Source: Sandaracinus sp. (GTDB lineage: Bacteria; Myxococcota_A; Polyangia; Polyangiales; Houyiibacteriaceae). Taken from it: a stretch of 64,000 bases of DNA. The stretch is from NCBI GenBank assembly GCA_002699025.1, contig PABA01000168.1:1-64000 (forward strand). Direction: 5' to 3'. Below the pieces are notes generated by a model, which ran no database searches, was not told the origin of the DNA, and saw only the letters and a program-made list of their open reading frames with translations. Made by a program: the position numbers and the translations under genes. The stretch's first letter is position 1. Every line of letters begins with the position of its first letter. Positions 10,474 through 63,349 of the stretch are shown in pieces.

Positions 10474-11667
10474 ATGGTTCGCCGATCCCTCCTCGTCCTT
10501 TCGCTCCTCTCCAGCCTCGGATTCCTCGCGCCGCCCGGCGCGGAGGCCCAGGACGAGCTGATCTTCGACGACGCCTTCCTCGTCATCCAGCTCGAGAACG
10601 AGGTGACGGCGCGGAGCGGGCGGCAGCCCTCGGAGGTGCACTACCGGCCGCAGATCCGGCTCCGCTTCTTCGGGCCGGTCTCGAGCGGCGACGCGGTGAA
10701 GATCCGCTGGCGGAAAGGACGCCGCACGCTCGCGGAGATCCGCTGCCCGCTCCAGTCCCGGCACGGGGACTGGCGGACCGGGCTCAGCCAGCGCTGCTGG
10801 AACCGGGACGAGGTCCAGCTCACGGCGCACGGGGACATCACGGCAGACGTGATCTTCGTCGACGACTCGGCCGACGAGGAGCGGACCATCCGCACGCTGC
10901 AGGTGCCCGTCGGGCGCTACTGGGCGGTGGACCGCACGATCCGGGGCCGCACGATCCACTCGCCGCGCTACCAGGTGCGAGGCGACGATCTGCTGGGGCT
11001 CTCGTACATCTGGTTCCGCGAGCCCGGCAACACGGACCCCTACGGCGACGTCTACCTCTACTTCTGGGCGACGCTCGCGAACGACGACACGAACTACCGC
11101 GACCCCTCCTGGCGCTGCACCCGGGACGGCGAGCTGGCGCCGGAGCTGAGCGTCGGGGACGACGTCGTCGAGTCGCTGACGGATATCCGCGTCACGGACG
11201 ACCAGATGCGCGGGCGGAGCCGCGAGACGACGCACTACGCCTGGCGGCTGATGTGGGTGAAGCCAGAGTGGATCTGGGGCACGGAGCGGAACCCGCGGGC
11301 GCCGAGCACCGTGTCGAACAGCCGCTACAACATCAGCGAGCACCCCGGGGAGTACGTCTGTCAGCTCCGCAACGAGGGGGAGATGGTGCGGACGTTCCGC
11401 TTCACGATCACCGAGGAGGGGACGGCGGCGCCGCACCCGGCGCAGACGGCCGAGGGGGGCGTGTCGCTGCGGCCCGGGGCGTTCTTCGTGGAGACGGGCT
11501 TCCCGCGGCGGAACGGAGCGGAGACGAGCTTCGACCGGGACGCCGTGCGGCGGAGCGTGGCGTTCGGGCGGGCGTGGCCGGACGATCCGGCCGTGCGTCG
11601 TTGGCTCCAGGGGCTTCCGCCGAGCTTCGGGCGGAGCGAGCCTCGCCCTCCGCGCGGCGCGCGCTGA
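10474..11667 (+). CDS. Exported protein, unknown function
   Basis: A 397-residue protein with a classical signal peptide (MVRRS, hydrophobic run, cleavage after Ala-Glu-Ala at about residue 25; no lipobox Cys). The mature part has even spacing of aromatic and charged residues consistent with beta-sandwich domains. Two Cys pairs are visible (IRCPLQ/QRCWNR and WRCTRD/YVCQLR). The segment around ISEHPGEYVCQLRNEGEMVRTFRFTI resembles the end of an immunoglobulin-like domain. No family was recognised. A longer start at 10390 lacks signal character. It lies divergent to the MopE-type lipoprotein, with a 233-bp gap. Confidence 0.75.
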   Translation: MVRRSLLVLSLLSSLGFLAPPGAEAQDELIFDDAFLVIQLENEVTARSGRQPSEVHYRPQIRLRFFGPVSSGDAVKIRWRKGRRTLAEIRCPLQSRHGDWRTGLSQRCWNRDEVQLTAHGDITADVIFVDDSADEERTIRTLQVPVGRYWAVDRTIRGRTIHSPRYQVRGDDLLGLSYIWFREPGNTDPYGDVYLYFWATLANDDTNYRDPSWRCTRDGELAPELSVGDDVVESLTDIRVTDDQMRGRSRETTHYAWRLMWVKPEWIWGTERNPRAPSTVSNSRYNISEHPGEYVCQLRNEGEMVRTFRFTITEEGTAAPHPAQTAEGGVSLRPGAFFVETGFPRRNGAETSFDRDAVRRSVAFGRAWPDDPAVRRWLQGLPPSFGRSEPRPPRGAR

Positions 11668-11704: not shown

Positions 11705-11819
11705 GTCCGCAGGACACCCGAGCCGGGGTCCGCAGGACACCCGAGCCGGGGTCCGCAGGACACCCGAGCCGGGGTCCGCAGGACACCCGAGCAGGGGTCC
11801 GCAGGATACCCGAGCCTCC
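11705..11819 (+). repeat. Five 23-bp repeats with GTCC-GCA-GGAC dyad
   Basis: Copies start at exactly 11705, 11728, 11751, 11774 and 11797. The unit is GTCCGCAGGAC followed by ACCCGAGCCGGG; the last copy has GGAT and lesser changes. The 11-base core is an interrupted palindrome with 4-base arms. The same core in the opposite orientation forms arrays at 29123-29305 and 60499-60665. Confidence 0.9.
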
Positions 11820-27470: not shown

Positions 27471-28982
27471 ATGCGGAAGTGGATGATGCTGGCGCTGCTC
27501 GCCCTCGCCGCGGCCTGCGGCGGGGACGACGCCATGGGGGACACGGACGCCGGCCCCACGGGGCCGGAGCCCGGGGAGCTCGGCTGGCCCTGCGCGCGGA
27601 ACGCGGACTGCAACTCGGGGCTCTGCCTCGAGGCGGGCGTCTGCACCGAGAGCTGCGTGGACACGGCGACCTGCCCGGAGAGCTGGGCCTGCGACCCCGT
27701 GCCCGGCGCGGGGCTCCTCTGCCAGTGCTCGCTCTCGTCGGTCGAGGAGCTCTGCAACGGCGTGGACGACGACTGCGACGGCGTGGTGGATCTCGGCGCG
27801 ACCTGCCCCGAGGGGCTCGTCTGCGAGGGCGGCTCCTGCACCTGCCCGCCGGAGGAGCGCTGCGACGGGGAGTGCGTGGATCGGCAGTCGGATGCGCGCC
27901 ACTGCGGGGCCTGCGGCAACGCCTGTCCGAGCGGCCAGGCCTGCGAAGGCGGCGCCTGCGTGGTCATGTGCAGCGCCGGGCAGACGCGCTGCGGGGACAG
28001 CTGCGTCGACGTGGCGAGCGACGCGCGGCACTGCGGCGCCTGCGACGCGGCCTGCTCCGCCGGGGGCGTCTGCGAAGGGGGCGCGTGCGTCTGCGCCGCC
28101 GGCACGACGAGCTGCAGCGGCGCGTGCACGGACACGACCACGGACCGCAACAACTGCGGCGCCTGTGGGCGGGTCTGTGCGGCGAGCGAGGCGTGCGTGG
28201 CCGGGGCGTGCGAGTGCGCGGCCGGCTTCATCCGCTGCGGGAGCGCCTGCGTGGACACGCAGCGGGACGAGGCCCACTGCGGAGCCTGCGGGAACGCCTG
28301 CCCGGGCGGCCAGGTCTGCGAGAGCGGCGCCTGCCGCGTGGCTTGCGGCGCCGGCGAGACGCGCTGCGGGGACAGCTGCGTGAACACCGACACGGACGCC
28401 GCGAACTGCGGAGCGTGCGGGAACGCTTGCGGGGACGGGGAGTTCTGCCGCGAGGGCGCGTGCGCGCTCGACTGCGGGGCGCTTCGGCTCTGCAGCGCGG
28501 CGTGCGTGGACGTCACGCGCGATCCGGACCACTGCGGTGACTGCGACAACGCCTGCGCCTTCGATCAGGTCTGCGCGGATGGGAGCTGCGTGTGCGAGGC
28601 GGGCCTCACGGCTTGTGGCGGGAGCTGCGTCAGCACGAGCTCGGACCCGTCCCATTGTGGAGAGTGCGGCAACGTCTGCCCGACCGGCTCGACGTGCTCG
28701 TTCGGGCGCTGCACCGTGCCCGTGGGCGAGGGCTGCTCGAGCGATCTCCAGTGCGGGGACGACCTCGCGGCCTTCTGCGCGACGGAGGGGGAGGGCTTCC
28801 CCGGTGGATACTGCACGAAGACCTGCGGGAGCTGCCCGATGGGCTCCATCTGCGTGGGGGTCGACGCGGACTTCGCGATTTGCCTCTCGCGATGCGGCGC
28901 GGGCTTCGGTTCGTGCCGTTCGGGGTACGACTGCGAGGTCCTCGACGACGGCGTGACCCGGGTCTGCCTGCCGCCGGCCTGA
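27471..28982 (+). CDS. Stig1-like cysteine-rich repeat lipoprotein
   Basis: A 503-residue lipoprotein; GAGGAG precedes the ATG. The lipobox is LAAAC (Cys16), then CGGDDAMGDTDAG. One MopE-type motif (LCNGVDDDCDGVVD) occurs near residue 100. It is followed by seven repeats of the 'CVDxxxDxxHCGACGNAC' type found in stigma-specific Stig1-like proteins of myxobacteria. Units end HCGACGNACPSG, HCGACDAACSAG, NCGACGRVCAAS, HCGACGNACPGG, NCGACGNACGDG, HCGDCDNACAFD and HCGECGNVCPTG. The C-terminal 80 residues form a separate Cys-rich cap. Role unknown; probably surface structure or binding. Strong hairpins follow the stop. Confidence 0.85.
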   Translation: MRKWMMLALLALAAACGGDDAMGDTDAGPTGPEPGELGWPCARNADCNSGLCLEAGVCTESCVDTATCPESWACDPVPGAGLLCQCSLSSVEELCNGVDDDCDGVVDLGATCPEGLVCEGGSCTCPPEERCDGECVDRQSDARHCGACGNACPSGQACEGGACVVMCSAGQTRCGDSCVDVASDARHCGACDAACSAGGVCEGGACVCAAGTTSCSGACTDTTTDRNNCGACGRVCAASEACVAGACECAAGFIRCGSACVDTQRDEAHCGACGNACPGGQVCESGACRVACGAGETRCGDSCVNTDTDAANCGACGNACGDGEFCREGACALDCGALRLCSAACVDVTRDPDHCGDCDNACAFDQVCADGSCVCEAGLTACGGSCVSTSSDPSHCGECGNVCPTGSTCSFGRCTVPVGEGCSSDLQCGDDLAAFCATEGEGFPGGYCTKTCGSCPMGSICVGVDADFAICLSRCGAGFGSCRSGYDCEVLDDGVTRVCLPPA

Positions 28983-29122: not shown

Positions 29123-29305
29123 GTCCTGCGGACGCCGCTCGGGCGTCCTGCGGACGCCGTCCGGAGCCCAGAGGCCGCCAGGTCTCTCGGATTCGCGGCG
29201 AGTCCGAGGGCCAGCGCCCATCCGGAGTCCTGCGGGCGCCGCTCGGGCGTCCTGCGGACGCGGCCCGGGCGTCCTGCGGACGTCCCGCTCGGGTGTCCTG
29301 CGGAC
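29123..29305 (-). repeat. GTCC-TGC-GGAC dyad array in the lon upstream region
   Basis: GTCCTGCGGAC cores start at 29123, 29145, 29227 (ends GGGC), 29249, 29271 and 29295. Spacing within the two clusters is 22-24 bp. Several copies extend to GCGTCC-TGC-GGACGC. Linker sequence (CCCGCTCGGGT) matches the reverse complement of the array at 11705, so this is the same family in inverted orientation. The gap 28983-29568 otherwise holds no gene. Confidence 0.88.
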
Positions 29306-29397
29306 CCCCAGATGCGGGGTTAGGGTGCTGAATTCATTGGGCTAGATGGTTCGCGAGGGGGGCCGGGAGCGGCTTCCTGCTCTGCTGCGCCGATTCA

Positions 29398-29414
29398 AAT
29401 GACTGCCGGTCATT
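29398..29414. promoter_or_regulatory. Palindromic operator-like site upstream of lon
   Basis: AATGAC-TGCCG-GTCATT is a perfect 6-bp inverted repeat in an AT-richer patch about 155 bp before lon. Its size and symmetry fit a dimeric (for example TetR-type) regulator, but nothing identifies the protein. Confidence 0.4.
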
Positions 29415-29534
29415 ACGGCTCCCGAGCGGAGCCCTGCGGACGCTCGCAGCGGGGCGAGCACGACGCCAGGCGGGCCGTAGGCTTGCAGAAAGCGTCGTTC
29501 TTTCGACGATTGGCGCCGAATCCTCGTTGCACCG

Positions 29535-29568: not shown

Positions 29569-31980
<2,412 letters not shown>

Positions 31981-58524: not shown

Positions 58525-60270
58525 ATGCGCTTCTCGCAGGCCTTCCTCCCCACGGTCAAAGAGGTCCCCAAGGACGCCGTCGACGCGTCCCACGTCCTCC
58601 TCCTCCGCGGCGGCTACATCCGCATGATTGGCGCGGGCATCTACGAGATGCTCCCGCTCGGTCAGCGCGTGCTGAAGAAGATCATCGCGATCCTCCGCGA
58701 GGAGCTCGACGCCGCCGGCTGCCAGGAGGTGCTCATGCCGGCGATCCTTCCGGCGAGCTACTTCCAGGAGACGGGCCGCTGGGACGTCTACGGCGACGTG
58801 CTCATGCGCCTGAAGGACCGCAAGGGCGGCGACTACCACCTCGCGCCGACGCACGAGGAGATCATCACGGACATGGTCCGGCGGGACGTCCGGAGCTACC
58901 GCCAGCTCCCGCTGAACCTCTTCCAGATCCAGATGAAGTACCGTGACGAGCCTCGCCCGCGCGCCGGGCTGATGCGCTGCCGCGAGTTCCTCATGAAGGA
59001 CGCCTACTCCTTCGACGTCGACGACGCGGCGGCGCGGAAGAGCTACGCGACCATGCGGAGCGCCTACGAGCGCATCTTCACGCGCCTCGGCCTCGACTTC
59101 CGCATCGTCGAGGCGGACAGCGGGCAGATCGGCGGCGACACGAGCGCCGAGTTCCAGATCCTCGCGCAGAGCGGGGAGGACCGCATCGTCGCCTGCGACG
59201 CCTGCGACTACGCGGCGAACGTCGAGGTCGCGGAGGCGCGGATCCCCGAGGCCGAGCCGCCGAAGGAGGCGGACATGAAGCCCCGGGAGCTGGTGGAGAC
59301 GCCGGGGACGAAGACCATCGAGCAGGTCGTCGCCTTCTTCGAGAAGGAGGGCTTCGGCGTCGAGGACGTGATCAAGAGCCTCGTCTACGTCGCGCCGAAG
59401 GCGGACGGCGAGAGCGAGATGGTGATGGCGCTCGTGCGCGGCGACCACGAGGTGAACGAGGTCAAGCTCGCGCGCCTGATGGGCGTCGACGAGGTGCACC
59501 TCGCCTCGGACGAGGACGTCGGGCGCCTGCTCCGCACCAAGGTCGGCTACGTCGGCCCGGTGAAGGACGCGCTCCCCGAGGGCGTGTCGATCCGCGTGGT
59601 CGCCGATCACGCGGTCGGCTCGATCCTCAACGGCGTCGCTGGCGCGACCAAGACGCAGTACCACTTCCGCCACGTGAACTTCGGGCGCGACTTCGACGCC
59701 GAGCTCCACCACCTCCGCCAGGTCGGGGACGGCGACGAGTGCCCGCGCTGCGGGGGGACGCTCCACGCCTACCGGGGCATCGAGGGCGGCCACATCTTCA
59801 TCCTCGGGACGCACTACTCGTCGAAGATGAACGCCACCTTCCTGGACGACGACGGGGAAGCGAAGCCCTTCGTCATGGGTTGCTACGGCATCGGCGTCAC
59901 GCGCCTGATGGCCGCCGCCATCGAGCAGCACCACGACGACGACGGCATCCAATGGCCCCTGTCCATCGCGCCCTACCAGGTGATCGTGCTCCCGCTCGGC
60001 AACGACGAGCAGGTCGCGGCGAAGGCCGAGGCGATCTACGAGGGGCTGAAGGCGAAGGGCGTCGAGGTGCTCTTGGACGATCGGGCCGAGCGGCCGGGCG
60101 TGAAGTTCAAGGACGCGGACCTCGTCGGCATCCCGCTGCGGGTGACGATCGGCAACCGCGGGCTGAAGAACGGCGTGGCGGAGCTGAAGATGCGGACCGG
60201 CGCCGACGCCGAGGACGTGCCGATGGACGAGATCGTCGAGGTCGTGGCGAAGCGGGTGCGCGGGGAGTGA
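58525..60270 (+). CDS. proS: Prolyl-tRNA synthetase
   Basis: A 581-residue bacterial-type ProRS that charges tRNA-Pro. Class II motifs: motif 1 region GGYIRMIGAGIYEMLPLGQRVLKKI, motif 2 KYRDEPRPRAGLMRCREFLMKDAYSF, and motif 3 VMGCYGIGVTRLMAAAIEQ. The YbaK-like editing insertion lies at about 240-390 (including KTIEQVVAFFEKEGFGVEDVIKSLVYV), and the anticodon-binding domain at about 480-581. ATG at 58525 matches where the family begins (RFSQAFLPTVKEVPKDA) and has TATCCC six bases upstream. An in-frame ATG at 58456, with TACCGT seven bases upstream, would add 23 residues. Confidence 0.96.
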   Translation: MRFSQAFLPTVKEVPKDAVDASHVLLLRGGYIRMIGAGIYEMLPLGQRVLKKIIAILREELDAAGCQEVLMPAILPASYFQETGRWDVYGDVLMRLKDRKGGDYHLAPTHEEIITDMVRRDVRSYRQLPLNLFQIQMKYRDEPRPRAGLMRCREFLMKDAYSFDVDDAAARKSYATMRSAYERIFTRLGLDFRIVEADSGQIGGDTSAEFQILAQSGEDRIVACDACDYAANVEVAEARIPEAEPPKEADMKPRELVETPGTKTIEQVVAFFEKEGFGVEDVIKSLVYVAPKADGESEMVMALVRGDHEVNEVKLARLMGVDEVHLASDEDVGRLLRTKVGYVGPVKDALPEGVSIRVVADHAVGSILNGVAGATKTQYHFRHVNFGRDFDAELHHLRQVGDGDECPRCGGTLHAYRGIEGGHIFILGTHYSSKMNATFLDDDGEAKPFVMGCYGIGVTRLMAAAIEQHHDDDGIQWPLSIAPYQVIVLPLGNDEQVAAKAEAIYEGLKAKGVEVLLDDRAERPGVKFKDADLVGIPLRVTIGNRGLKNGVAELKMRTGADAEDVPMDEIVEVVAKRVRGE

Positions 60271-60485
60271 GCGAGCCGGAGCCGAGCGAGGGCGTGGGGC
60301 CCCATGGAGAGCGCGAGTCGCCGCTCGTGGGCAACCTCGTGCTCTGGGTGGGCTTCGTGGTGCTCGTGGTGATCTCGGTGTTCACCGTGCTCCTCCCGGA
60401 GCTGCTCGACGACGACCCGGAGCGCACGACGGCCGAGGAGGCGCCCGCGGCCGAAGGGGCGCCGGCCGAGGACGCGGCCGAGTAG
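60267..60485 (+). CDS. Small single-pass membrane protein coupled to proS
   Basis: A 72-residue protein starting GTG inside the proS stop (GTGA overlap) with GGGGAG just upstream. Hydrophilic N-terminus, one strong transmembrane helix (about 21-44, VGNLVLWVGFVVLVVISVFTVLL), and an Ala/Glu/Pro-rich acidic tail. Family unknown; coding is supported by the overlap, the ribosome site and the clean helix. Confidence 0.7.
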   Translation: MSEPEPSEGVGPHGERESPLVGNLVLWVGFVVLVVISVFTVLLPELLDDDPERTTAEEAPAAEGAPAEDAAE

Positions 60486-60498
60486 GGCGCTTCGAGAG

Positions 60499-60665
60499 GA
60501 GTTCTGCGGGCGCTCGGATGGAGCCCTGCGGACGCGCGGAAGCGTCCTGCGGACGCGCGTGAAGCAGTCCCGCGGACGTACGGAGGAGTCCTGCGGACGC
60601 GCGCAAAGGAGTCCTGCGGACGCGCCGAGGAGTCCTGCGGACGCGGGGAAGGAGTCCTGCGGACC
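60499..60665 (+). repeat. Eight-copy GTCC-TGC-GGAC dyad array
   Basis: Units of GAGTCCTGCGGACGCG start at 60499, 60521, 60542, 60565, 60586, 60609, 60630 and 60652; the steps are 21-23 bp. The first, second and fourth copies carry core changes (TTCTGCGGGC, CCCTGCGGAC, TCCCGCGGAC). The array fills the start of the gap 60486-60850; the rest holds the next gene's promoter region. Confidence 0.92.
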
Positions 60666-60850: not shown

Positions 60851-63349
60851 GTGACGCGGACTCCTCGTGTAGTTTCCAGGGTTTTTTCGGCCCTCGTGGT
60901 GGTGCTGGCCTTCCAGGTCGGGACCGCGCACGCCTACACCGGCGAGCCCCTCTGCGCCCTCGAGCCGCCGCCGCTGATCTCCCTTCCGCCGGTGGCCGCC
61001 GAGGAGCCCACGCCCGCGCCCATGTGCCAGCCGGTGCTGCGCGATCCGGCGCCCGCGAGGGATCTCGACCGGGGGAGCCTGCGCGAGGCCTGGGCGCGCT
61101 GTCGGGCCAAGGCCGAGGAGGCGCCCGGGGAGGCGGCCCTCGAGCTCGCAGCGCTCCGCGAAGGCTTCCCGCGGCTCGTGGATCTCTGGGAGCTCGAGCA
61201 GGCAGACCTCGCCCTCGCGGCCGGTGACGCGGAGGAGGCGTACCGCGCCTACGAGCGCGCGCGGGAGGCGACGGTCGAGAGCGACGTGCTCATGCGCGCC
61301 CGGGTCGGTCAGGTGCGCGCGCTGCTCGTGATGGGGCATCGGGACGCCCCCGAGCGCCTGACCCGCCTGCTGCGTCAGTACCCGGAGCTCCCCGAGGAGC
61401 CGGCGCTCCGCTTCGAGCTCGCGCGCATGCGCGAGGCGGGCGACGCGGTCGAGGACGCTATCGGCACCTACCGGGCGCTCGTGGTCCAGCACCCCGGGAG
61501 CGCGCTGGCCGGGCGCGCGGAGGCGCGGCTCGGGGCGCTCCGCGAGCGCGGAGTGGCCGTGCGCGAGCTGACGCCGCACGAGCGGGTCGAGCGCGTGGAG
61601 CGCCTCGTCCGCCGCGGGCCCTTGCCGACGGCGCGCGTGGAGCTGGCGGAGCTCGAGGCCGAGGAGCGGCTCCACCCGACGCTCCGGGCGCGCGTCCACT
61701 TCCTCTCCGCGCGGCTGGCGCGGCACGAGGGGCGCTGGGCGGACGCGCGGCGCCACTTCGAGCTCGGCCAGCGCATCGGCGCCGAGGTGGGCGACGAAGA
61801 GGATCGGGAGCGCCGCACGGAGCGGGCCGAGGACATGGCCGCGGCCGAGCGGGCGCGGGAGCGGGACGAGGCTGAGCGGCAGCTCCGGCGCCTCGGCTGG
61901 GGCCGCGGTCGGCTCGCGCGGCTCGGGACGCTTCGGCTCATGGGCATGCTCGAGATCGCGGCGCGGGCCGGGGTCGCCGAGGCGAGCAACGCGGTCCTCG
62001 AGACGCTCGTCGAGCGGGGGCTGCCGCCCCGGCTCCGGCTGAAGGTGGCCCTCGAGGCCATGGGCGCCGGGGACGACGCGCACGTCTTCGCGCTCCTCGA
62101 TGGGCTGCACGAGCGGCCGGGCTCGCTCGGGCTCCAGGCCGCCTACCACCGGGCGCGGGCGCTCCAGCGGCTCGGGCGCTTGGCCGAGGCGGAGCTCGCG
62201 TTCCTCGAGGTGATCGAGCGCGACCGGGGCATCACGCCCTTCTATGCGATGTGGGCCGAGCTCCAGCTCGACCACGTGCGCGCGGACATGGTCGGCTTCT
62301 GCGGGCCCGAGGCGGCCTGCGAGTCGCCCGACCCGGAGGCCGAGGGGAGCGCGAAGCCCGCGGGGGCGCCGACGCCGCGCATGGAGGGCTTCGCCCCGCC
62401 GGCGCGCGCGGAGCAGGACGAAGACGTCGCCGAGGGCGAGGGGCAGGGCGAGCCCGAGGGGCCCGACTTCGACGCGCTCGCCGATCGGCTCGGGCCCATC
62501 GTCGAGGCTCATGGCGAGGCCTACCCCTGGCTCGGGCGCGCCGAGGATCTCCTCCGCCTGCACCGGCCCGAGCCGGCCGGGCGGCAGCTCTACGAGGCCT
62601 TCCTGGCGTGGCGCGAGGCGAGCGGCCGGCCGATCCGGCGGGCGGGCATCGAGAGCGTGGCGCGGGGCGCGAACCGGCCCCGGCGCTTCACGAGCTGGCA
62701 GCTCCGGCGCGACCGCAAGCGCATCTCCGCCGAGGAGCGCGAGGTGCTCGCCGACATCGGCGCTGCCATCGACGACTGGGGCGCCGCGACCGGCTGGGGC
62801 GGCTGGGATCGGGTGGCCGTGCGGCCGCGCGCCTACGAGGCGCTGGTCGAGGAGGCCGCCGCGCGCCACGGCCTCGATCCGAACCTGCTCTTCGCCGTGA
62901 TGCGCGTCGAGAGCGTCTACCAGAAGCACATCGTCAGCTACGCCGGGGCCATCGGGCTCTGTCAGATCATGCCGCGCACCGGGCAGCTCATCGCGGACGC
63001 CAAGGGCGAGCGGGACTTCACGACGGCGGACCTGCTCGACCCGGCGGTGAACCTGGACTTCGCGGCCTGGTACCTGCGCTCGTTGATCGAGCGCTTCGAC
63101 GGGCACCTGCCGCTGGCCATCGCGAGCTACAACGGCGGCCCGCACAACGTGCGGCGCTGGCTCCAGGACCGGCCGGCGGACATGCCGCTGGACGTCTTCC
63201 TCGAGCACATCCCCTTCGGCCAGACCCACCGCTACGTGCGCCGGGTGCTCACGCACTACCGGGCCTACCGGGCGCAGGAGGGCCTGCCGATGGCGTCGCT
63301 CGACGACGACCTGCCCACGCCGCGGCCCGATCGCGAGATCGGCTTCTGA
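60851..63349 (+). CDS. Soluble lytic murein transglycosylase (Slt family)
   Basis: An 832-residue exported enzyme that cleaves peptidoglycan glycan strands. Signal peptide from GTG at 60851 (VVSRVFSALVVVLAFQVGTAHA). A long helical, TPR-like superhelix of about 600 residues follows, as in Slt70. The C-terminal goose-lysozyme-like domain has the catalytic glutamate in RVESVYQKHIVSYAGAIGLCQIMPRTG (Glu687), then NLDFAAWYL and LPLAIASYNGGPHNVRRWL. Gly-Leu-Cys-Gln replaces the usual Gly-Leu-Met-Gln. CACACT lies nine bases before the GTG, with TTGCGA 17 bp above it. An acidic low-complexity insert occurs at about 490-540. Confidence 0.93.
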   Translation: MTRTPRVVSRVFSALVVVLAFQVGTAHAYTGEPLCALEPPPLISLPPVAAEEPTPAPMCQPVLRDPAPARDLDRGSLREAWARCRAKAEEAPGEAALELAALREGFPRLVDLWELEQADLALAAGDAEEAYRAYERAREATVESDVLMRARVGQVRALLVMGHRDAPERLTRLLRQYPELPEEPALRFELARMREAGDAVEDAIGTYRALVVQHPGSALAGRAEARLGALRERGVAVRELTPHERVERVERLVRRGPLPTARVELAELEAEERLHPTLRARVHFLSARLARHEGRWADARRHFELGQRIGAEVGDEEDRERRTERAEDMAAAERARERDEAERQLRRLGWGRGRLARLGTLRLMGMLEIAARAGVAEASNAVLETLVERGLPPRLRLKVALEAMGAGDDAHVFALLDGLHERPGSLGLQAAYHRARALQRLGRLAEAELAFLEVIERDRGITPFYAMWAELQLDHVRADMVGFCGPEAACESPDPEAEGSAKPAGAPTPRMEGFAPPARAEQDEDVAEGEGQGEPEGPDFDALADRLGPIVEAHGEAYPWLGRAEDLLRLHRPEPAGRQLYEAFLAWREASGRPIRRAGIESVARGANRPRRFTSWQLRRDRKRISAEEREVLADIGAAIDDWGAATGWGGWDRVAVRPRAYEALVEEAAARHGLDPNLLFAVMRVESVYQKHIVSYAGAIGLCQIMPRTGQLIADAKGERDFTTADLLDPAVNLDFAAWYLRSLIERFDGHLPLAIASYNGGPHNVRRWLQDRPADMPLDVFLEHIPFGQTHRYVRRVLTHYRAYRAQEGLPMASLDDDLPTPRPDREIGF

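What the first reader, a model, noticed from the sequence alone, without database searches (positions are those of the whole stretch)
60499..60665. Phased arrays of a dyad-symmetric 11-mer, GTCC-TGC-GGAC
Seen: the interrupted palindrome GTCC-TGC-GGAC occurs 8 times here (three copies imperfect), 5 times at 11705-11819 (as its complement) and 6 times at 29123-29305, almost always at 21-24 bp steps. Some copies have 6-bp arms (GCGTCC-TGC-GGACGC). Linkers vary but the core and spacing persist. Inference: the spacing equals about two helical turns, so a dimeric protein could sit repeatedly on one DNA face. This could be a nucleoid or transcription-boundary element, or a REP-like mobile repeat.
Basis: partly seen in the sequence, partly recalled or inferred. 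Interest (0 to 1): 0.68.

Follow-up and report, generated by a model that had tools for sequence, protein, structure and literature searches.

The report
Helix-phased arrays joined to TetR operators
One bacterial genome carries over 600 copies of an 11-letter near-palindrome in tandem arrays between genes, and many of these arrays form one end of a repeated DNA element whose other end, at helically phased distances, is the operator of a TetR-family protein; this looks like a dispersed docking platform for DNA-binding proteins that I found described nowhere.

Summary
GTCCTGCGGAC occurs 14 times exactly in the window (shuffles 0.07) and 618 times in the genome (reversed control 39). It was not found as tandem pairs in any of 283 other genomes of the phylum. 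In 1.5 Mb sampled, 207 of 208 copies are intergenic, every cluster has one orientation, and steps are 21-24 bp. The core is about three times better conserved than linkers within arrays, and no pairing covariation supports an RNA hairpin. Many arrays (55 of 88 clusters in partly targeted samples) are the 5' end of a larger element: array, middle block, then a dyad that is a TetR operator. Type A dyad (TGAACTTGACGTCAAGTTCA, about 30 copies; 22 of 22 examined have cores nearby) is the autoregulatory site of a TetR gene in five other genera, one copy each. Type B dyad (TGACCnnnGGTCA; 29 of 30 have cores) sits in triplicate 20 bp before another TetR gene. Distances between parts differ mostly by whole helical turns. 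Sequence between parts is close to random, so the parts look maintained. Best reading: a genus-specific, DNA-level protein-docking element, BIME/RIB-like in place and modularity, but with other parts and no RAYT. The 11-mer's protein and the function are inferred.

The parts
60501..60664 (+). Array 3: 8 tandem units with core GTCCTGCGGAC (5 exact, 3 imperfect), steps 21-23 bp, starting 16 bp after the stop codon of the 60267-60485 gene; no module dyad recognised downstream
29123..29305 (+). Array 2: 6 units (5 exact), steps 22-24 bp with one 82-bp gap; 5' part of a complete type B element
29321..29340 (+). Middle block of the type B element, TAGGGTGCTGAATTCATTGG (9 of 12 consensus positions of CAAnnnnnnGAAnnCATTnG), 26 bp from the start of the last core
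29400..29412 (.). Type B dyad TGACTGCCGGTCA (TetR-type operator), 105 bp from the start of the last core and 79 bp from the middle block
29431..29441 (+). One-mismatch core GCCCTGCGGAC just after the dyad, possibly the remnant of a second tandem element
11705..11807 (-). Array 1: 5 units (4 exact), exact 23-bp period; solo array whose 3' side abuts the gene ending at 11667, no dyad found
29569..31980 (+). Context: Lon protease gene downstream of the type B element
27471..28982 (+). Context: gene upstream of array 2 (STIG1-like repeats)
60267..60485 (+). Context: small gene (72 aa, no Pfam match) that ends 16 bp before array 3
60896..63349 (+). Context: gene downstream of array 3 (SLT transglycosylase domain)

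Best explanation
The arrays belong to a genus-specific family of composite intergenic DNA elements that work at the DNA level as docking platforms for several proteins. Anatomy (shown): one to about 17 copies of G-M-GTCCTGCGGAC-N-C, then a type-specific middle block, then a dyad that is the operator of TetR-A or TetR-B, with distances that vary mainly by whole helical turns. Some arrays stand alone. Mechanism (inferred): an unidentified dimeric protein X loads on the 11-mers; a TetR-family dimer binds the dyad; helical phasing lets them touch across bent DNA around the middle block. The elements lie mostly after stop codons and between tandem or convergent genes, next to unrelated genes. So the likely role is chromosome-level (structure, boundary, or a TetR reservoir) rather than an operator for each neighbouring gene.
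For: Genome-wide excess and absence elsewhere in the phylum. Intergenic 207/208, single orientation per cluster. Core diverges 0.043 per site against 0.125 in linkers within arrays; flanks -2 G and +2 C nearly fixed; no complementary covariation. Dyad-first tests: 22/22 type A dyads have exact cores within 600 bp, 29/30 type B dyads within 400 bp, 19/21 exact type B dyads have an exact core at 60-180 bp, 13 of them at exactly 117. Intervening sequence between loci is only 42% identical against 32% expected. Helical-turn steps: A core-to-middle 51-53 or 61-63, middle-to-dyad 75-77 or 85-88; B middle-to-dyad 79 or 90. TetR-A autoregulation is footprinted in five other genera; the TetR-B gene has three type B dyads just upstream, the nearest 20 bp away. 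Neighbouring genes have no shared function. Divergent promoter regions are under-used, 5 of 49 against 143 of 520. No Rfam match and no consensus RNA fold beyond the dyads.
Against: No protein for the 11-mer was found and no binding was measured. Both TetR genes are preceded by core and dyad, so some elements may be true promoters. Phasing p-values treat copies as independent although they share ancestry, and a few type A copies have values between the classes (58, 80, 81). The 23-bp arrays are not strictly in phase. Part of the sample was chosen because it holds cores or dyads, and gene calls come from a home-made caller.
Confidence: 0.45

Rival explanations
1. Dispersed selfish or neutral composite repeat: copies of a TetR promoter region with an attached 11-mer spread through intergenic space by an unknown recombination or transposition route and expanded locally by slippage; the sites have no host function.
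For: Extragenic bias, local tandem duplication of whole elements with a period near 149 bp, a recent pair at 93% over 283 bp, local array homogenisation, neighbours unrelated, confined to one genome.
Against: Where dyads survive, cores are intact (19 of 21 exact, the other two not found at 60-180 bp) although the sequence between is nearly random; neutral decay would hit cores equally. Spacing changes favour helical turns. No RAYT and no terminal inverted repeats seen.
Confidence: 0.27
2. A real regulon: each element is a promoter region with an upstream activator array (11-mer) and a TetR operator, some in unusual positions; the dispersed copies are mobile promoters that drive downstream or antisense transcripts.
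For: TetR-A and TetR-B genes lie directly behind such elements; activator-site steps of one helical turn resemble class I activation (general knowledge); type A tandem cases are about 7 sense to 1 antisense.
Against: About half of the type A elements with both flanks known lie between convergent genes and only two between divergent genes; type B tandem cases are mostly antisense; no sigma-70-like promoter near the window element; no functional coherence.
Confidence: 0.2
3. RNA-level hairpins: tandem stem-loops in 3' UTRs that act as terminators, stabilisers or processing sites.
For: Each core can fold (GCGUCCUGCGGACGC -8.3 kcal/mol) and arrays fold better than shuffles, z -1.3 to -8.4; many sit just after stop codons.
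Against: No compensatory changes at flanking positions; loop TGC as conserved as the arms; no T run and no terminator call; both orientations relative to genes.
Confidence: 0.05
4. Ordinary minisatellites: slippage products without any shared origin or function.
For: Within-array homogeneity of linkers; the GC-rich relative G011 also has many intergenic tandem repeats.
Against: The same 11-mer at many independent loci with different linkers, core better conserved than linkers, linkage to specific dyads.
Confidence: 0.03

Closest known systems
BIME / REP elements of enterobacteria and others (PMC2817692, PMC3733652)
   Same: High-copy short palindromes, extragenic, mostly after genes or between convergent genes, modular composite structures that bind proteins.
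   Different: Core is 11 bp (about 15 with conserved flanks), head-to-tail arrays, no unpaired GTAG or CGTC tag, no Y1 transposase in the genome, and TetR operators as a part.
RIB/RIP elements (BIME-1) with an IHF site, at 3' ends of transcription units (Boccard and Prentki 1993, cited in PMC2817692)
   Same: Composite repeat at 3' ends with several protein sites.
   Different: REPs are in opposite orientation and IHF is the bound protein; here tandem 11-mers plus a TetR operator. The type B middle block only loosely resembles an IHF site (from memory, not tested).
SlmA and its binding sites in E. coli (TetR-family nucleoid occlusion factor; 24-52 sites, PMC3573117)
   Same: A TetR-family protein with tens of palindromic sites spread over the chromosome rather than a gene regulon.
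   Different: TetR-A scores far below the SlmA cut-off (18.4 against 120 bits) and its neighbours are lipid genes (Mpo1-like, fatty acid desaturase); the 11-mer array has no counterpart.
REPIN-RAYT systems (PMC3116915)
   Same: Lineage-specific population of intergenic palindromes.
   Different: No RAYT, no inverted pair architecture.
CGTC-tagged REPs (PMC3733652)
   Same: Lack a dedicated transposase; some copies here contain CGTC across flank and arm.
   Different: CGTC is part of the arm here, not an unpaired tag; stems of 8-9 bp with 4-5 base loops are not met.

Membership tests
REP/BIME (GTAG or CGTC type) | 20-40 bp imperfect palindrome with an unpaired GTAG or CGTC tag at one end | tested here: not met
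   Core 11 bp with flanks G-M and N-C; no GTAG; CGTC only as part of the arm
REP/BIME (GTAG or CGTC type) | Extragenic, high copy number | tested here: met
   618 copies; 207 of 208 sampled intergenic
REP/BIME (GTAG or CGTC type) | Clusters with alternating or head-to-head orientation | tested here: not met
   0 of 41 clusters with mixed orientation; at L242 separate groups in one region point both ways
REPIN-RAYT | Resident Y1_Tnp (PF01797) transposase | tested here: not met
   0 matches in G000, controls ring; assembly 95.9% complete
MITE | Terminal inverted repeats and near-identical copies | tested here: inconclusive
   Ends differ (11-mer against TetR dyad) and copies share about 42% between loci, but no search for target duplications was possible
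Intrinsic terminator | GC stem followed by a T run | tested here: not met
TetR operator (type A dyad) | Palindrome upstream of its own TetR gene, conserved across relatives | tested here: met
   Single copy next to the TetR-A ortholog in five relatives of other genera, 48-60% identity
TetR operator (type B dyad) | Palindrome upstream of its own TetR gene | tested here: met
   Three dyads just upstream of TetR-B in L261, the nearest 20 bp away; conservation in relatives not tested
SlmA-type nucleoid occlusion | SlmA orthology | tested here: not met
   18.4 bits against a cut-off of 120
SlmA-type nucleoid occlusion | Biased chromosomal distribution and FtsZ inhibition | not testable with these tools
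   238 unordered contigs; needs experiment
RIB/RIP (IHF-binding repeat) | IHF binding between palindromes | not tested
   Resemblance of the type B middle block to an IHF consensus is from memory only
Known structured RNA | Match to an Rfam family | tested here: not met
   0 matches in six loci with elements

The most novel reading that the evidence does not exclude
Two TetR-family proteins, at least one of them ancestrally a self-regulating repressor with a single site beside lipid genes, have been turned in this genus into genome-wide architectural proteins: their operators were spread to tens of intergenic sites as part of helically phased elements whose shared end is a tandem array for an unknown dimeric nucleoid protein, forming a new kind of bacterial chromosome-organising or boundary system.
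Probability: 0.25. Interest if true: 0.88.

Novelty: new variant of a known kind. Interest (0 to 1): 0.66.

Why it matters
Composite intergenic repeats such as BIMEs have been known for decades without an agreed role. Here the parts can be named: one dyad has a cognate protein by phylogenetic footprint and the other by adjacency, distances step by helical turns, and relatives show the single-site state of type A. That makes the question of what such repeats do directly testable by ChIP and by 5-bp against 10-bp insertions. If the elements organise the chromosome, it would be a case of a TetR repressor becoming an architectural protein.

Tried and rejected
RNA hairpin or riboswitch (no covariation, no Rfam match, no fixed sense to genes). 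Intrinsic terminator. RAYT-driven REPs (no PF01797). Protein-coding repeat (most periods are 22-24 bp and 207/208 copies are intergenic). Horizontal family shared with other bacteria: exact triple arrays exist in Elusimicrobia, Actinomadura, Gammaproteobacteria, Lentisphaerae, Clostridia and Bacillota records, but several lie in open frames as 21- or 24-bp protein repeats and their linkers differ, so I treat them as separate; no genome-wide control with another 11-mer was possible. Similar palindromic arrays with another core in relatives G002, G008 and G011: none seen in 383 kb. Regulon of neighbouring genes: no enriched family. Literature search for the 11-mer: no hit. Virus contigs: no hit.

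Full report
Observation. The three arrays exist as described: 8 units at 60501-60664, 5 at 11705-11807 (minus strand) and 6 at 29123-29305. The window holds 14 exact copies where dinucleotide shuffles give 0.07. The window lies in contig 179 of a 9.24-Mb, 238-contig assembly, G000, 95.9% complete. The genome has 618 exact copies (reversed-pattern control 39) and 345 tandem pairs (control 6). Tandem pairs occur in none of 57 relatives and none of the 283 other genomes drawn from the phylum. Relaxing the loop to NNN adds one chance-like pair in one relative.

Placement. I fetched 80 stretches of G000 and called genes with a simple codon-usage caller (coding fraction 85%). Of 208 exact copies in 1.5 Mb, 207 are intergenic; all 41 clusters have a single orientation; spacings are 20-24 bp with multiples where a copy has decayed. 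Many arrays start shortly after a stop codon. In a larger set, array-bearing intergenic regions are tandem 30, convergent 14, divergent 5, against 269, 108 and 143 in unselected stretches, so divergent promoter regions are avoided.

What is conserved. The loop TGC is fixed (208 copies; the next loop type has 9). Flanks add G at -2 (33 of 33 arrays), A or C at -1 (32 of 33) and C at +2 (30 of 33), with no complementary covariation between the two sides. Within arrays the core differs at 0.043 per site and linkers at 0.125; between arrays linkers are largely unrelated while the core is the same. This fits a duplex recognition site better than a hairpin or a plain slippage product.

The larger element. 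Alignment of array tails showed a 20-bp palindrome about 140 bp downstream of 21-bp arrays. A whole-genome search found 30 sites of TGAACTTGACGTCAAGTTCA with up to 3 mismatches and none for the control. All 22 distinct sites in the stretches examined have cores within 600 bp. A second dyad, TGACCnnnGGTCA, behaves alike: 29 of 30 have a core within 400 bp. Starting from exact dyads, 19 of 21 have an exact core at 60-180 bp, 13 at exactly 117 bp. Between core and dyad lies a middle block (CAAnnnnnnGAAnnCATTnG in type B, GGCGGAATnCGnCATGATGnC in type A). The rest is variable: type B copies from different loci share 42% where composition predicts 32% and shifted controls give 29-36%. Elements can be tandem with a period near 149 bp. 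The window array at 29123 is a complete type B element with middle block at 29321-29340 and dyad at 29400-29412, upstream of lon. The arrays at 11705 and 60501 are solo arrays. Of 88 clusters examined, 29 have a type A dyad and 26 a type B dyad downstream, but part of this set was fetched because of the dyads.

Helical phasing. In type B, core to middle is 26-27 bp and middle to dyad is 79 or 90 bp. In type A, core to middle is 51-53 or 61-63 bp and middle to dyad is 75-77 or 85-88 bp, with a few at 58, 80 and 81 (two copies re-measured from the nearest degenerate core; copies with a poorly matched middle block left out). A Rayleigh-type test at 10.5 bp gives R 0.87 and 0.73 (0 of 20,000 and 1.5e-4 of random uniform spacings reach this). 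Copies are related, so these p-values are optimistic, but both spacing classes occur in both middle-block subtypes.

Cognate proteins. In five relatives of other genera the type A palindrome occurs exactly once, just upstream of an ortholog (48-60% identity) of a G000 TetR gene at L096:13950-14588, whose own promoter also has it. None of these relatives has the 11-mer there. That TetR sits between a fatty acid desaturase and an Mpo1-like gene. Three type B dyads lie just upstream (nearest 20 bp) of another TetR gene, L261:4394-5059 (TetR_C_34), preceded by a nine-unit array and a middle block. A third TetR (TetR_C_33) lies next to type B elements in L119. Genes next to arrays otherwise share no family (131 families in 102 genes, at most 3 genes each; controls 155 in 104).

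Interpretation. Shown: the parts, their linkage, their spacing, the conserved role of dyad A in relatives, and maintenance of the core where surrounding sequence has drifted. Inferred: that a protein X binds the 11-mer, that X and TetR touch across phased DNA, and that the role is chromosomal rather than gene-specific. Rivals are a neutral composite repeat and mobile TetR-regulated promoters. RNA-level action is unlikely: no Rfam match, no consensus fold beyond the dyads, no terminator, and no consistent sense relative to genes.

Relation to known kinds. It resembles BIME/RIB elements in place and modularity (PMC2817692, PMC3733652), yet fails the REP tag, orientation and RAYT criteria. It resembles SlmA sites (PMC3573117) in that a TetR-family protein would have tens of dispersed sites, yet the protein is not SlmA. 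I rate it a new variant of a known kind (composite intergenic repeat), with a real chance that the underlying system is new.

Caveats. Gene calls are approximate; part of the sample was selected by cores or dyads; the assembly is fragmented, often at the arrays; no second genome of the genus was available.

Noticed in passing
L061, L067 and genome G058 (Elusimicrobia CG1_02_37_114): The same 11-mer occurs 23 times (control 0) in a 37-40% GC genome, often within AGATAGTCCTGCGGACAAA, inside open frames and between genes: an apparently independent dispersed repeat with an identical core.
   Followed up: partly
L063, L068, L164, L170 (gammaproteobacterial MAG SB0662_bin_60): Arrays of GCGTCCTGCGGACGC at 21-bp steps, next to a related hairpin CCTGTCCTTCGGACAGG.
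   Followed up: partly
L096:12401-15073: TetR-A sits between a fatty acid desaturase and an Mpo1-like gene; the small Mpo1-like gene also follows the TetR ortholog in L280-L283.
   Followed up: partly
L095:7041-7104: A third dyad type, ACTGACACGTCAGT, twice, downstream of a 14-copy array and upstream of a HAD hydrolase gene.
   Followed up: no
L264:4831-5270: Three complete type B elements in tandem with periods near 149 and 161 bp.
   Followed up: partly
G011, L182-L187: A relative from another genus is rich in intergenic tandem repeats of 12-32 bp without a shared palindromic core.
   Followed up: no
G000 contigs C23, C24, C31, C36, C39, C50, C53: Many contigs start or end inside or close to arrays, so the true copy number is probably higher than 618.
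   Followed up: no
window 27471-28982: Protein with six STIG1-like stretches, a family named for plant stigma proteins, next to array 2.
   Followed up: no
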